DNA of 32,773 nucleotides from a bacterium (GTDB lineage Bacteria > Patescibacteriota > Minisyncoccia > UBA6257 > WO2-44-18). The DNA lies in NCBI GenBank assembly GCA_030646995.1, contig JAUSKF010000004.1, positions 148,404-181,176 of the forward strand. Reading direction: 5' to 3'. The position numbers and the translations under genes are program-made. Of the stretch, positions 3,891 through 22,979 are shown piece after piece; position 1 is the first letter of the stretch; every line of letters begins with the position of its first letter. The notes beneath the pieces were generated by a model. That model was given only the letters and a program-made list of their open reading frames with translations. It searched no databases and was not told the origin of the DNA.

Positions 3891-3906
3891 CATCAAGGCT
3901 TTTGTA

Positions 3907-4023
3907 TGCCGGCGTACCCTACTTTCCCGACCACCGAAGCAGCAAGTATCATCAGGCTCAAGCGCTTTCACTTCTCTGTTCGGAATGGGAAGAGGTGGGA
4001 CACGCTCGAGTGAAACACCAGCA
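3907..4023 (-). rRNA. rrf: 5S ribosomal RNA
   Basis: The minus strand reads as a 5S rRNA of about 117 nt. Conserved segments include the loop B/C region with CCATTCCGAACAG and the end GTAGGGTACGCCGGC. The 5' GCTGGTGT pairs with the 3' ACGCCGGC to close helix I. It lies about 100 nt downstream of the 23S gene and is presumably co-transcribed with it. The ends are accurate to a few bases. Confidence 0.93.
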
Positions 4024-4054
4024 AGCAAAAAACTTGATGTGAACACTTATTTTT

Positions 4055-4106
4055 TTGAAATTGTTTTTTGGTGATGCGCCTGTAATGTGACCAATTATTA
4101 TCAACA
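4055..4106 (-). other. Pre-23S rRNA processing stem, 3' strand
   Basis: This segment is the inverted partner of 7303-7356. The first 25 bp (4055-4079) match perfectly and the rest is mostly paired. In the transcript the two flanks form a stem of about 50 bp enclosing the mature 23S, the classic substrate for RNase III. The stem itself is visible; cleavage is inferred. Confidence 0.85.
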
Positions 4107-4117
4107 GTTCTAGTGCA

Positions 4118-7250
<3,133 letters not shown>

Positions 7251-17439: not shown

Positions 17440-18588
17440 TTATTTATCACCACCAGATATTGCCTCTAGCCCATTGCGTGCACGCTCAATAAGATCATCA
17501 TACGTCAGCACTTCGATACCATGAAAATACGACATTATCCGCCGCAGATATTTTGGATGAACATCCGAAGTCGTCTTAACCCCATCGACTCCAGAGGCGA
17601 CGCTTCTTCTTCCAATCAAAAGGATTCCCTTCGGTTTGTAATATCGTCCATAAGTATCCGGTAATATCTCCTCGCCGCTTTTATCATCTTTCTCCTGACG
17701 ATACTCGCTGGTATAAAACTCAAGATATGCCATTAACTGGCCTAGAGCTTTAGCTGTGTCGTCTGCAATGTACTGGCGACCCATTTTATCAGTCCTTAAA
17801 ACCTCAGCCGTTGGAAGTTTTATCTCTAATATATCGCTGAGCCCATCGATTCTTTTTAAGCGCCGATCGGGAATGCCGGAAGAGCCAGCTCCGCGGATAT
17901 CGGCGCTTATATATTCTGGACCAAAAATCCACGGCGCCGAGGTGAGAAATTCTTGTATTACCAACTCATTAGCGCCTGAAGTGTTAATCAATTTTTCAAA
18001 TTCGGTAATTACTGAGAACTTCTCCTCAATTTTTGTTCGTATCAAACCTTTCTTAATCAGATCTGGAAGGTCAAGTCCTGCCGTAAGATATCCATCCTGG
18101 AACAATTTAAGCAATATCTCCTTCCCAGCCTCGTCTTGAGCAAGGGCAACTAATTTAGCCTGTAGATCAGGGTCAAGTTTCAAATTGGCATCGAAACTAA
18201 GACGCCCGGCTGCTACCGCCGATAGATTTGTCTTCTGTAAAAAATCAATAAAGTCACGAAGTACAACTAGGTTTTTGGTGTCAATTCGGATTTCGACCTT
18301 ACTATTCGGGTCAAGCACTCCCTTTTTCTTTTCATACCTTTCGATTTTTAGCTCAACCACCTGCCCACGTTGAGCAATATAGGCGGCTCTTATCTGTAGC
18401 CGAGCACCCTCATATAAAACCCGACTCCCGCCTTCCGGCTGATCTGCAACAACGCTGAAATACTTCCCGCTTTGACCCCGAAAATCTGATGCATATATTT
18501 TCCCGGGCAATTTTCCAGCGACATAGTCAGGTGCTGACGCCTCAACCAGTTTCATGCCCCCTATCTCTTTCGGTTGAATGTTTTCCAT
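17440..18588 (-). CDS. sduA: Shedu anti-phage nuclease SduA-like (DUF4263)
   Basis: The 382-residue protein ends in a DUF4263 domain (about 195-370), the nuclease domain of the single-gene Shedu defence system. Key features are the preceding FLTSAPWIFGPEYI block, typical of DUF4263, and the PD-(D/E)xK-type core IPDRR...SDILEIKLP, with Asp252, Glu255 and Lys257 counted from this start, then Gln284 in LGQLMAYLEF. The N-terminal half (about 1-190) is a variable domain, as in other Shedu proteins, and probably sets the trigger. The start is ATG 18588; an in-frame ATG at 18618 adds 10 hydrophobic residues. It is the last gene of a minus-strand block of restriction-type genes. Confidence 0.85.
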   Translation of the reverse strand: MENIQPKEIGGMKLVEASAPDYVAGKLPGKIYASDFRGQSGKYFSVVADQPEGGSRVLYEGARLQIRAAYIAQRGQVVELKIERYEKKKGVLDPNSKVEIRIDTKNLVVLRDFIDFLQKTNLSAVAAGRLSFDANLKLDPDLQAKLVALAQDEAGKEILLKLFQDGYLTAGLDLPDLIKKGLIRTKIEEKFSVITEFEKLINTSGANELVIQEFLTSAPWIFGPEYISADIRGAGSSGIPDRRLKRIDGLSDILEIKLPTAEVLRTDKMGRQYIADDTAKALGQLMAYLEFYTSEYRQEKDDKSGEEILPDTYGRYYKPKGILLIGRRSVASGVDGVKTTSDVHPKYLRRIMSYFHGIEVLTYDDLIERARNGLEAISGGDK

Positions 18589-18649
18589 AGCGACAAAATA
18601 ACACAAAAGACTGCTCATTGAAAATGTGGCCGAAATTTAGGGCAGAAAA

Positions 18650-19005: not shown

Positions 19006-19436
19006 TTATTTCTTGTAAAGTACAAAGTGCGGGAGCTCATCGAGTCCGCTATACCTGAACATTTTATAGTTAGCGCGCCTAGCTTCCGGTGAAAGCGTAT
19101 ATTTCCTGAGGCTCCCCTTCGGAACGAACGGATAAAATCTAATTTCTTGATGCTGCCCTTGTTTGTCGGTCCATTTAAAATTCGCCATCATTGGCGGGGT
19201 CATAAAGCCGGATTTTAAAACTTTTTCCATAATTTCCCAACCGGCACCAAAAATTTCTTTTTTAGGCTAGAATTATTAGTTTTAACCTGCGCGCGGAAAG
19301 AACATCCAGTGCATTGCACATCGTAAAGGGGATAATTTTGCGGCAAAGACATTAACTTTTTCCCGCAATTCGGGCAAGGAATTAACTTTATTATTTCTTG
19401 CTCCCCCTTGTCTCCCGCAATCTTATTTCCAGCCAT
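19006..19436 (-). CDS. DpnI-like (Dam-replacing family) nuclease, split by a -1 frameshift
   Basis: Two overlapping ORFs (19215-19436 and 19006-19230) together make one protein of about 143 residues. The first has a zinc knuckle (Cys21, Cys24, Cys42, Cys45) and a PD-(D/E)xK-like site, Asp39 and QVK (Gln50, Lys52). The second supplies the rest: IFGAGWEIMEKVLKSGF, IRFYPFVPKGSL and LSPEARRANY. This order mirrors the catalytic domain of DpnI (CxxC, FELK, GAYATMMK, LAPTARRAG) as I recall it. DpnI's C-terminal winged helix is absent. The shift falls exactly at A-AAA-AAG (19257-19263). It could be an indel in the A run, a phase-variable switch or programmed frameshifting. If the family match holds, it would cut methylated DNA. 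Confidence 0.72.
19257..19263 (-). other. A-AAA-AAG slippery heptamer at the frame change
   Basis: The zero frame reads CTA AAA AAG, the dnaX-type heptamer. A -1 slip continues GAA ATT TTT GGT, the exact frame of the downstream ORF. A 5-bp GC stem (GCCGG 19241-19245 with CCGGC 19207-19211) begins 11 nt beyond it, with a 29-nt loop. Adding one A to the run would restore the same protein. Confidence 0.6.
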
Positions 19437-19501
19437 GACCGAATTAGATCATGGCGGATCTGGCTTTGCAATAAATTAAAGTCTACGTCGAAATTTTCTA
19501 A

Positions 19502-20215
19502 CTATCCCAGTAACTTTTTGATTTGTTCTTGTACCGCTTTGTCGGCCTTCAGAACAGGTCTAGGAGATGCCACCGCGATAGCCCTCCCTTTTGCGTCAAA
19601 CACATAGTCATCCTTATAAACACCATTGCATACCTGACATTGAGGAATAGAATTTTCTAACGATAAAGGCTTAAGAGGGTTCATGTGTCCCTGCTGTAGC
19701 GTCGTTCTTTTATCGGGCTCTAAAAAATTAGGCTTCCTTTCTTGCGAGCCGCATGTTGCACAACGAAAATCGTATACCGCCTTAAGCGATTCGAAATCTT
19801 TTGCGGCTAACCTGCCAGCTCTTTTCAGCGACTTAAAAAGAAATGATGGCTTTGGACTTTCTGTAGTAATTAGTATGTGATATCCACTAGGTACAGTCTC
19901 TGATTTCTCGGGCAGTTTATCGCCACGATTTAGGATATACCATCCATCACCAGCTAAATGACGCACCTGCTGGTCTTTGCCAATTTTCGGCATCACAGTC
20001 TCCACGAAAGATGAGATAGTATCTTTATGTACGGGTTTGCCCTGATATTTTCTTAAAAAAATTAACCACAAAGCTTTTGTGGTATTCCATTTTGGAAACC
20101 TTACTCCATATTTTGCAAGATATGTTGCGTGTTCTACTTCAAGCTTCCTATACCAATCCTCAATCTCCTCTGGAGACATAAAGGTATGGCTGCCCTGTTT
20201 ATCTATTTTTTTCAT
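19502..20215 (-). CDS. HNH endonuclease, likely type II restriction enzyme
   Basis: The 237-residue protein has a C-terminal HNH domain (about 150-215): a zinc pair CATCGS, then GHMNPLKPLSLENSIPQC with the catalytic His and Asn, a second pair CQVCN, and DDYVFDAKGR. The N-terminal 145 residues form an unassigned, probably DNA-recognising domain. Its start lies 17 nt inside the 3' end of the methyltransferase gene, the tight coupling usual for a restriction-modification pair, so it most likely cuts the site that the methyltransferase protects. The recognition sequence cannot be deduced. Confidence 0.85.
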   Translation of the reverse strand: MKKIDKQGSHTFMSPEEIEDWYRKLEVEHATYLAKYGVRFPKWNTTKALWLIFLRKYQGKPVHKDTISSFVETVMPKIGKDQQVRHLAGDGWYILNRGDKLPEKSETVPSGYHILITTESPKPSFLFKSLKRAGRLAAKDFESLKAVYDFRCATCGSQERKPNFLEPDKRTTLQQGHMNPLKPLSLENSIPQCQVCNGVYKDDYVFDAKGRAIAVASPRPVLKADKAVQEQIKKLLG

Positions 20216-21188
20216 GAGACTTTAATCTTTCCGCTGAGGCTTCAAAATATTTTTTTTCAATCTCAAAACCGATAAATTTCCGGCCAATACCTAGAGCGGC
20301 AACACCAGTTGTTCCACTTCCCATAAATGGATCGAGAACAATTTGCCCCGGAACACTAAATATTTCGATAAGACGACTCATCAAATCTACAGGCTTTATT
20401 GTCATATGGTCAATAGTTTTCCGGGCTCCGGTTGTTTTTTTGTAGTTAAAAATCGTTGTCGGTTGATCGTCAAAGTCAGTTTTAATAAGTCCCGTCTTCC
20501 ATTTCATCCAATTATCTACAAAGGTTCCGTCTTTTGGTTTTTGAGCCAAAAGAATTGCCTCAAATTTTGGACGTAATTGTGGCGTCTTTCTATTCCCCAT
20601 CTCCTCAATAATGCTTCGCTTTCTATCGGGATCAATTTTCATTTTATTAACAAAGTGATTTTGAGTGAACGCCTTTCCTTGTCCGCCACTATGCTCCCAT
20701 GCCAACATATCGCGTATTTCAAATCCGGCATTTTCTGCAGCAATGGCAATTCTATGGAATAATCGGCCTTGCGAGAAGGAAACCAAGAAACCACCTGGCT
20801 TTAAAACACGCGAAGCCTCAACGGAGACTTGATTAAAAAATTTCTCAAGTCGTATCCCTTGCTCAGGATCGAACTTCATACCTACCGGAAGTCCTCCAAT
20901 CGTGCCCGCCTTAGATACTTTATTTTTTAAGCTCTTATCTGACCAATTGTTATCCATCCCATCAAGAAAATAGGGCGGATCTGTAGCAATAAAATCGACG
21001 CTATTGTTTTTAAGCAAACGAAAAGCCTCCATGCAATCAGAGTTATAAATAGTGGCATTGCCTATCTTCTTAATGGGGTTCTCCATCGCCTTGGCTACTT
21101 CTCCAATTATAACAGTTTCGATAGCTGAACTATCTCTCAAACCAAAGTTGGGGTCTTTAAAAAAATCTAATGAAAGTTGTTGGATCAT
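20199..21188 (-). CDS. Beta-class site-specific DNA methyltransferase (N4/N6)
   Basis: This enzyme transfers a methyl group from SAM to an amino group on cytosine or adenine in DNA. The catalytic motif IV DPPY is near the N-terminus (ATDPPYFLDG, about residues 68-77) and the SAM-binding motif I comes late (VLDPFMGSGTTGVAALGIGRKFIGFE, split here as two runs: VLDPFMGSGTTG and IGRKFIGFE). This is the beta-class order. The ATG at 21188 is preferred over the TTG at 21197. It overlaps the HNH nuclease gene. In the upstream gap (21198-21319) I see only an imperfect dyad around GTCGGACGAGTCG (about 21209-21223) and no gene. Confidence 0.93.
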   Translation of the reverse strand: MIQQLSLDFFKDPNFGLRDSSAIETVIIGEVAKAMENPIKKIGNATIYNSDCMEAFRLLKNNSVDFIATDPPYFLDGMDNNWSDKSLKNKVSKAGTIGGLPVGMKFDPEQGIRLEKFFNQVSVEASRVLKPGGFLVSFSQGRLFHRIAIAAENAGFEIRDMLAWEHSGGQGKAFTQNHFVNKMKIDPDRKRSIIEEMGNRKTPQLRPKFEAILLAQKPKDGTFVDNWMKWKTGLIKTDFDDQPTTIFNYKKTTGARKTIDHMTIKPVDLMSRLIEIFSVPGQIVLDPFMGSGTTGVAALGIGRKFIGFEIEKKYFEASAERLKSHEKNR

Positions 21189-21319
21189 GATAAACAAAAA
21201 ATCGGAAACGACTCGTCCGACTTAGTGAAAGTATGTTTCAACTTTCTATTAAACCGGAGATTATTAGGTTTATAATTGGTTGAGTATCTCCGATAATGAC
21301 GAGTCTTATTAACTAACGC

Positions 21320-22176: not shown

Positions 22177-22201
22177 TAAGAATGCAGTACAACTGAATAG
22201 G

Positions 22202-22356
22202 AGGTATCTAGAGTGGTGGCGAGAGAATTGGCTCAATGACCCACCCGGCAACCTGCGAAAGTAAGGTGCCAAATCCAACCAAGGGAGCGCTCTGCTCTCA
22301 CGGAAAGATGCATAGTCGAGCGTCTTTCCTCATTACAAACGAGGATTTTTTATTTT
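22202..22356 (+). ncRNA. SAM-I-like (S-box) riboswitch with expression platform
   Basis: The aptamer core matches S-box signatures: GAGTGGTGGCGAGAGAATTG, GGCTCAATGA, CCCGGCAACC and AGGTGCCAAATCC, with P1 formed by GTATCT (22204-22209) and AGATGC (22306-22311). After it, GGAAAGATGC (22302-22311) can pair with GCGTCTTTCC (22320-22329). Alternatively TCCTC (22327-22331) pairs with GAGGA (22341-22345), followed by a T tract reaching the ATG at 22357. These two pairings exclude each other. GAGGA is also the only Shine-Dalgarno, so SAM binding should shut off the gene by termination, by hiding the ribosome site, or both. The switching logic is inferred. Confidence 0.82.
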
Positions 22357-22650
22357 ATGGAACAAAATTTTATTTTGATTCAGGACGGTAAAAAGAAGAT
22401 TTATGAGATACCAGAAGAAGATATCGGCAAGTTTAAGCTTCTAGGCAGCGCGGGCGGCTTCTCGATCGGTTTTTGTTTGTACATCGGCAGTAAACACTCC
22501 GAGAACTTCCTTGACCGAGTATGCGGCTACCGTATTGAAAAGAATGGCTTCGGAGAAATGATGAACGAAGCGGCTCGGCAGGCAGGGCTTCCGGCGCGCC
22601 ATCAAGAGAATATAACCGTCAGCTTTTACGAGGAAAAAACAAACAATTAA
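22357..22650 (+). CDS. Unknown small protein under SAM-riboswitch control
   Basis: A 97-residue protein, soluble, mixed alpha/beta, beginning MEQNFILIQDGKKKIYEIP. No family or catalytic motif is recognised; it has two Cys (in GFCLYIG and RVCGYRI). It starts directly after the terminator-like T tract of the S-box leader. S-box targets are usually methionine, cysteine or SAM metabolism or transport genes. This protein resembles none of those, so the target is unusual. Confidence 0.75.
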   Translation: MEQNFILIQDGKKKIYEIPEEDIGKFKLLGSAGGFSIGFCLYIGSKHSENFLDRVCGYRIEKNGFGEMMNEAARQAGLPARHQENITVSFYEEKTNN

Positions 22651-22670: not shown

Positions 22671-22979
22671 ATGAATGAAGAAAAAGTATCGTGCGAAATA
22701 CCGAGGGGGTTATATAAGTGTGAGCTGTGTGGCGAGTATAAAGGAGGGGTAATGGAGAAAGACTTAGATTGGGACGGATTTTTTAATAAAGAGGAGGCGG
22801 AAAAGAGCGAGGAATATCTCGGCGTGTCTTGTCTTTGCGATGGCATCTTATGCCTAAAGTGCAAAAAAAATAAGATCCATAGACCCATCTCTAATTCATA
22901 CTATGCTGACACCAATACAATTGAGCACCACCCGTATTTTTCGGGGATGATGGGCTGCGCTGAATGCAGGGAGAAATAA
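22671..22979 (+). CDS. Unknown small protein with several CxxC zinc-binding pairs
   Basis: A 102-residue protein with three CxxC pairs: CELC (residues 17-20), CLKC and CAEC, plus single Cys in VSCEI and SCLCDG. This suggests one or two structural zinc sites. It follows the 97-residue gene by 20 nt on the same strand, so both are probably controlled by the SAM leader. A weak hairpin (CCCGT/ACGGG, 22980-22994) after the stop may be its terminator. Confidence 0.7.
   Translation: MNEEKVSCEIPRGLYKCELCGEYKGGVMEKDLDWDGFFNKEEAEKSEEYLGVSCLCDGILCLKCKKNKIHRPISNSYYADTNTIEHHPYFSGMMGCAECREK

What the first reader, a model, noticed from the sequence alone, without database searches (positions are those of the whole stretch)
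19006..19436. DpnI-like nuclease split exactly at an A-AAA-AAG slippery site
The zinc-knuckle and catalytic half lies in one frame and the ARRANY half in the -1 frame. The junction is precisely the dnaX-type heptamer, and a GC stem lies 11 nt downstream. Slippage would make the full-length protein. A deleted A in the run would give the same picture, so this is a pseudogene, a phase-variable switch, a sequencing error or programmed frameshifting. If the enzyme cuts methylated DNA, low or switchable expression next to a methyltransferase would make sense.
Basis: partly seen in the sequence, partly recalled or inferred. Interest (0 to 1): 0.7.

Follow-up and report, generated by a model that had tools for sequence, protein, structure and literature searches.

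The report
Broken DpnI-like nuclease gene
A small DNA-cutting enzyme gene of a tiny bacterium has lost one base just ahead of a slippery A-run; its many relatives elsewhere are whole, so this is most likely a recently inactivated gene rather than a programmed frameshift.

Summary
The split is real. On the minus strand, 19436-19215 encodes the Zn-knuckle/catalytic half of a PF06044 (DpnI) protein and 19266-19006, in the -1 frame, encodes the rest. A_AAA_AAG (19263-19257) is in the right phase for -1 slippage. But the junction is not the heptamer. Of 74 homologous loci, 65 are whole single frames; 65 of 65 have Pro, and 63 of 65 have Lys before it, where the window is one base short (19268-19267), 3 bases upstream of the heptamer. 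The downstream frame already reads that Pro (CCT) before the A-run. AAA AAA GAA is simply Lys-Lys-Glu read out of phase; three whole homologues carry the same run in frame. No homologue is split there, the GC stem is no better than shuffled sequence, and it can form in 10 of 64 homologues. Six other homologues are disrupted by different lesions. Best reading: a recent one-base inactivating deletion. Slippage would restore a same-length protein (Lys-Pro becoming Ser-Leu), so weak leaky rescue is not excluded. The neighbouring methyltransferase belongs to an HNH nuclease, not to this gene. In passing: a conserved promoter with GATC sites precedes this gene in about a sixth of homologues, including the window.

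The parts
19215..19436 (-). N-terminal half of the DpnI-like nuclease (73 aa): C-x2-C ... C-x2-C, D...QVK; last 17 residues are out of frame
   Evidence: PF06044 27.5 bits (cut-off 26.7)
19267..19268 (-). site of the lesion: the codon that is Lys in 63 of 65 intact homologues is one base short
19257..19263 (-). A_AAA_AAG heptamer, 3 bases after the lesion; the Lys-Lys-Glu codons AAA AAA GAA seen out of phase
19006..19266 (-). C-terminal half in the -1 frame (86 codons + stop), starting with the universal Pro codon; includes GAGW, QEIRFYPF and ARRANY
19207..19245 (-). GCCGG/CCGGC stem proposed as stimulator; not better than shuffles, pairs kept in 10 of 64 homologues
19443..19471 (-). conserved sigma70-like promoter TTG-N17-TGATCTAAT ending 6 nt before the ATG, two GATC sites 10 bp apart
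19502..20215 (-). HNH-type protein (by motif, read from the sequence), partner of the MTase in an R-M pair
20199..21197 (-). N6/N4 DNA methyltransferase (PF01555)
17440..18618 (-). Shedu SduA-like nuclease (PF14082) downstream in the same defence cluster

Best explanation
The gene encodes a wing-less, about 142-aa DpnI-type nuclease that was inactivated recently by loss of one base in the Lys codon just before an invariant Pro. Shown: the frame changes upstream of the A-run; all other strongly conserved residues and the promoter are still present. Inferred: ribosomes read 17 wrong codons and stop, giving a 73-aa product with catalytic residues but without the rest of the nuclease fold, hence no enzyme. 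The A_AAA_AAG is the old Lys-Lys-Glu codons, put into slippery phase by the deletion itself.
For: 65 of 74 homologous loci are intact single frames; Pro in 65/65 and Lys in 63/65 at the break; the codon alignment leaves the window one base short there. Best HMM junction is at Lys-Pro (259.4 bits vs 254.6 at the heptamer). Homologues L012, L035 and L036 have CCN AAA AAA G in frame and are whole. Disruption is common in the family: 6 of 74 loci carry other lesions (L044 TGA, L063 TAG, L078 TGA plus truncation, L084 TAA, L085 internal loss, L081 lacking the N-terminal part). Of 8 genomes of the window's family searched, 2 carry the gene and both are broken differently. The lesion is recent: 44 of 45 columns at least 95% conserved are kept, the only loss being the junction Lys; identity of both halves to intact homologues (medians 74% and 66%) equals intact-vs-intact (71%, 67%); end branch 0.34 vs median 0.25. 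No second copy matching PF06044 in the genome. In the AlphaFold model of the intact homologue L035 (pLDDT 92.5) the break falls in the loop after the catalytic strand, so neither half is a domain.
Against: The in-phase heptamer 3 bases downstream is a 1-4% coincidence, and slippage there would give a protein of exactly the homologues' length with only two residues changed (254.6 bits against a homologue median of 255.2), so it would probably fold. Full conservation elsewhere also fits a gene still in use. The HMM margin (about 5 bits) rests mainly on one Pro. No reads and no same-species genomes were available.
Confidence: 0.72

Rival explanations
1. Sequencing or assembly error: the living cell has an intact gene.
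For: Lesion is a single base; everything else is conserved, including the promoter; this is a draft genome of 6 contigs.
Against: The missing base is not in the homopolymer run, where such errors concentrate (general knowledge); I saw no other split gene among the 22 window genes used (read from the ORF list, not tested by homology); independent lesions in other genomes show that the gene is often lost.
Confidence: 0.15
2. Leaky rescue ('savior' situation): a real deletion tolerated because -1 slippage at the adjacent A_AAA_AAG restores a trickle of full-length enzyme.
For: Correct phase, same-length product, near-normal HMM score; 44 of 45 conserved columns kept. PMC4066793 (passages read) gives about 0.3% slippage for V_VVA_AAG heptamers without stimulator in E. 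coli, up to 3.7% in the best 3' context; PMC5009743 (passages) describes compensatory and 'savior' frameshifting, including an A_AAG site compensating a nearby -1 mutation.
Against: No stimulator: stem at shuffle level; no Shine-Dalgarno-like run in the 20 nt upstream (read by eye); a recent pseudogene predicts the same conservation.
Confidence: 0.09
3. Programmed -1 frameshifting selected to set enzyme dosage.
For: Heptamer phase and a short GC stem at 11 nt.
Against: 0 of 65 intact homologues is split; the frame changes upstream of the heptamer; stem not conserved (10 of 64) and not stable beyond chance. The GeneTack study requires a conserved frameshift site in a cluster (PMC3711429, Table 1 passage).
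Confidence: 0.02
4. Two separate polypeptides: the C-half is started by coupling at ATG 19230-19228, which overlaps the N-half ORF end, and the halves assemble.
For: The ATG lies just upstream of the TAA of the first half.
Against: That ATG is an internal Met of intact homologues; the residues from Pro57 through GAGW would be missing, including strand 61-65 and the start of helix 66-74.
Confidence: 0.02

Closest known systems
R.DpnI (PF06044; PDB 4KYW, 4ESJ)
   Same: Catalytic-domain fold (Foldseek E 2.9e-7, TM 0.79 on the query), four-Cys Zn knuckle, Asp and Lys of the active site (alignment)
   Different: No C-terminal winged helix (142 vs 254 aa); Gln replaces the second catalytic Glu (Glu64 of DpnI, PMC4117772 passages) in all 52 rows of A2; the window copy is broken
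Neisseria Drg (dam-replacing gene product)
   Same: The namesake of the PF06044 'Dam-replacing family'; Gm6ATC-specific nuclease (PMC4269198, abstract in listing and passages)
   Different: About 38 kDa with a winged helix, at the dam locus; not compared here by sequence
dnaX-type -1 programmed frameshifting
   Same: A_AAA_AAG heptamer in phase
   Different: No conserved site, no stimulator, frame changes upstream of the heptamer
Compensatory ('savior') frameshifting after an indel (PMC5009743)
   Same: Indel with a slippery site close by that restores the frame
   Different: No evidence of expression

Membership tests
PF06044 DpnI / Dam-replacing nuclease | Pfam score above cut-off | tested here: met
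   N-half 27.5 bits vs 26.7; intact homologues L005 45.4 and L006 30.4, but L010 25.5, below the cut-off
PF06044 DpnI / Dam-replacing nuclease | Zn-binding Cys pairs and PD-(D/E)XK active site | tested here: inconclusive
   Four Cys, Asp and Lys invariant; Gln instead of the second acid, as in the PD-QXK of Mrr named in PMC11037411
PF06044 DpnI / Dam-replacing nuclease | C-terminal winged-helix m6A reader | tested here: not met
   Homologues end after about 142 aa, the catalytic domain only
PF06044 DpnI / Dam-replacing nuclease | Cleavage of Gm6ATC | not testable with these tools
   No assay
Programmed -1 ribosomal frameshifting | Slippery heptamer in the zero-frame phase | tested here: met
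Programmed -1 ribosomal frameshifting | Homologues are split at the same site | tested here: not met
   0 of 65 intact homologues split; the 6 disrupted loci have other lesions
Programmed -1 ribosomal frameshifting | Homology changes frame at the heptamer | tested here: not met
   Changes at the Lys-Pro codons upstream
Programmed -1 ribosomal frameshifting | Downstream stimulator or upstream Shine-Dalgarno-like element | tested here: not met
   Stem z -0.04; longer spans z -0.61 and -0.74; no purine-rich SD within 20 nt upstream (by eye)
Phase variation by repeat slippage | Long homopolymer or tandem repeat at the frame change | tested here: not met
   The lesion is not in the A6 run
R-M partner of the adjacent MTase | DpnI-like gene conserved beside this MTase | tested here: not met
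   MTase adjoins the HNH gene in 6 of 6 related loci; DpnI-like found in 0 of 6 within the flanks held, at most about 1.5 kb

The most novel reading that the evidence does not exclude
The deletion is kept because the A_AAA_AAG next to it lets a small share of ribosomes make the full-length nuclease, so the lesion turns expression down rather than off, on top of a promoter whose -10 element overlaps a GATC and could sense adenine methylation.
Probability: 0.07. Interest if true: 0.55.

Novelty: new member of a known kind. Interest (0 to 1): 0.22.

Why it matters
It shows how a slippery heptamer can appear at a frame break by chance: an upstream deletion shifts ordinary Lys-Lys codons into slippery phase. 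Homologue codons, not the heptamer, settle the matter. The by-product may matter more: a DpnI-like gene widespread in Patescibacteria and found in other phyla, often disrupted, sometimes carried with its own GATC-bearing promoter, which makes methylation-sensitive control of a methyl-directed nuclease testable.

Tried and rejected
Rejected: (1) programmed frameshifting, see above. (2) Deletion inside the A-run. (3) Phase variation. (4) A first thought that L011 had a compensated double frameshift round ARRANY (written so in my first notebook entry): the same FTTIKKSGREL-type segment recurs in L070, L074, L075 and L076, so it is a natural variant. (5) Reassigned TGA in the genome of L044: its neighbour ORFs (e.g. 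489 and 417 aa) are intact under table 11, so TGA is a stop. (6) MTase-nuclease pairing, rejected. (7) A viral origin: 25 pattern matches in viral contigs, none a relative. (8) GATC avoidance in the window: 92 seen vs 157 expected, but GTAC and CATG are also low, so inconclusive. (9) A Dam-type enzyme as reason for loss: the only PF02086 match in the genome is below the cut-off and overlaps a PF01555 match. Search for Patescibacteria + restriction-modification + DpnI gave 0 papers; the regulation search was seen as listing only, so no claim of priority is made. Literature was seen as listings and passages only.

Dropped rows: from 74 loci, L044, L063, L078, L084, L085 (disrupted) and L080-L083 (contig ends, or N-part missing in L081) were left out of the 65; 52 of the 65 were given to the structure prediction. 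The tree used 69 rows: 65 intact, L044, L063, L084 and the window. Stem count: 64 loci in which both motifs were found. Promoter count: L081-L083 and L033 (short upstream) left out, window added, 71 rows; 11 promoters aligned (L015 without a TTG and L027 with an 18-nt spacer left out).

Full report
What is there. The window lies in a 751-kb, 6-contig genome. On the minus strand an ORF of 73 codons (19436-19215) holds the Zn knuckle and D...QVK motif of the DpnI family (PF06044, 27.5 bits). The -1 frame, open from 19266 to 19006, carries the other half, GAGW...QEIRFYPF...ARRANY. A_AAA_AAG sits at 19263-19257 in slippery phase.

Where the frame changes. The C-half was searched in 8 genomes of the family (2 with a match, the window's own included), 379 of the phylum (9 with a match) and 383 of the class (7; the draws overlap); an alignment of seven homologues was then scanned against 84,980 species genomes and gave 74 loci. 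65 of them are whole single frames. Every one has Pro, and 63 have Lys before it, in ..T-x-x-x-K-P-K... In the window the frame-0 codons align up to Ser (TCT, 19271-19269); two bases follow (19268-19267); then comes CCT (Pro) in the -1 frame, then AAA AAA GAA. The Lys codon is one base short and the A-run is complete. Scoring every possible junction with an HMM of the 65 puts the best at this codon (259.4 bits with X at the break; 259.7 for the equivalent slip next to it) and gives 254.6 at the heptamer. The margin is modest, but the universal Pro codon in the downstream frame, before the heptamer, points the same way.

Is the heptamer more than chance? The -1 deletion itself turns any downstream AAA AAA G into A_AAA_AAG. 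In the homologues 1.2% of simulated deletions (285 of 23,313), and in window genes 0.6% (115 of 19,257), are followed by one before the next stop; 3 of 69 homologues have CCN AAA AAA G right here. This is a mild coincidence chosen after the fact. The stem 11 nt downstream folds like shuffled sequence (z -0.04; 93 of 200 shuffles as good; longer spans z -0.61 and -0.74) and all five pairs can form in 10 of 64 homologues.

What kind of lesion. Six other loci are disrupted in other ways, including L063 (the same gene as L003), the only other carrier among 8 genomes of the window's family, which has an in-frame TAG. Decay of this gene is thus common. In the window it is recent: 44 of 45 strongly conserved columns are kept, both halves are as similar to intact homologues as these are to each other, the end branch is ordinary (0.34 vs median 0.25) and the promoter is intact. 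No second PF06044 match exists in the genome.

What the intact protein is. AlphaFold on 52 of the 65 (pLDDT 92.5) gives the DpnI catalytic fold (4KYW, TM 0.79 on the query). The winged helix is absent, and Gln takes the place of the second catalytic acid in all 52 rows. PD-QXK nucleases exist (Mrr, named in PMC11037411), so activity is plausible but untested. The break lies in the loop after the catalytic strand; neither half could be a working nuclease (inference).

Neighbours. The MTase at 20199-21197 overlaps the HNH gene 19502-20215; homologues of the HNH gene found in 6 other genomes of 379 searched all have the MTase next to them and no DpnI-like gene in the flanks held. A Shedu-like gene lies downstream. 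The DpnI-like gene is a separate item in a defence cluster. Elsewhere some copies follow hsdR at once, e.g. L012, L024 and L039 (named HsdR by me from its sequence, not by a family search).

A promoter seen in passing. TGATCTAAT ends 6 nt before the ATG in 10 rows and 8 nt before in one, 11 exact cases of 71 rows including the window; in the 74 loci (1.457 Mb, both strands) 10 of all 15 exact copies are these. A TTG lies 17 nt upstream in 11 of the 11 rows aligned (L027, left out, has 18), and 9 of those 11 have a second GATC 10 or 11 bp upstream of the first. In 379 phylum genomes the full pattern occurs in 8; only the two before the DpnI-like gene (G000, G017) precede an ORF longer than 11 codons (the one in G000 is the window's own gene, whose first frame runs 73 codons); the reversed control pattern matched 1 genome. 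It looks like a sigma70-type, near-leaderless promoter whose -10 overlaps GATC, travelling with the gene. Shared descent is not excluded, but the genes themselves are about 65-75% identical and the bases between the motifs vary. That methylation controls it is a guess.

Verdict. Ordinary in its main point: a recently broken DpnI-like gene, with a slippery heptamer made by the lesion itself. Weak leaky rescue remains possible; programmed frameshifting is unlikely.

Noticed in passing
window 19443-19471 (-); also upstream of the gene in L019, L020, L026, L027, L035, L037, L040, L042, L044, L058, L063: Conserved promoter TTG-N17-TGATCTAAT-N6-ATG with GATC overlapping the -10 and often a second GATC one helical turn upstream, specific to the DpnI-like gene.
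   Followed up: partly
window 19502-21197 (-): HNH-type gene plus N6/N4 methyltransferase form a conserved R-M pair: 6 of 6 related loci.
   Followed up: partly
window 17440-18618 (-): Shedu SduA-like protein (PF14082, 43.6 bits) next to the R-M pair: a small defence cluster.
   Followed up: no
L012-L085: Short DpnI-like nuclease without winged helix, with Gln for the second catalytic acid, spread over Patescibacteria, DPANN archaea, gut Alphaproteobacteria and Elusimicrobia, sometimes directly after an hsdR-like gene.
   Followed up: partly
L063, L044, L078, L081, L084, L085: Different disruptions of the same gene: repeated loss.
   Followed up: partly
window 22201-22314 (+): SAM riboswitch (RF00162, 48.8 bits) upstream of two small ORFs (22357-22650, 22671-22979) with no Pfam match.
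   Followed up: no
window 3906-7243 (-): 23S and 5S rRNA without a 16S in the window; the 23S match spans 3122 nt against a 2925-position model, so an insertion is possible.
   Followed up: no
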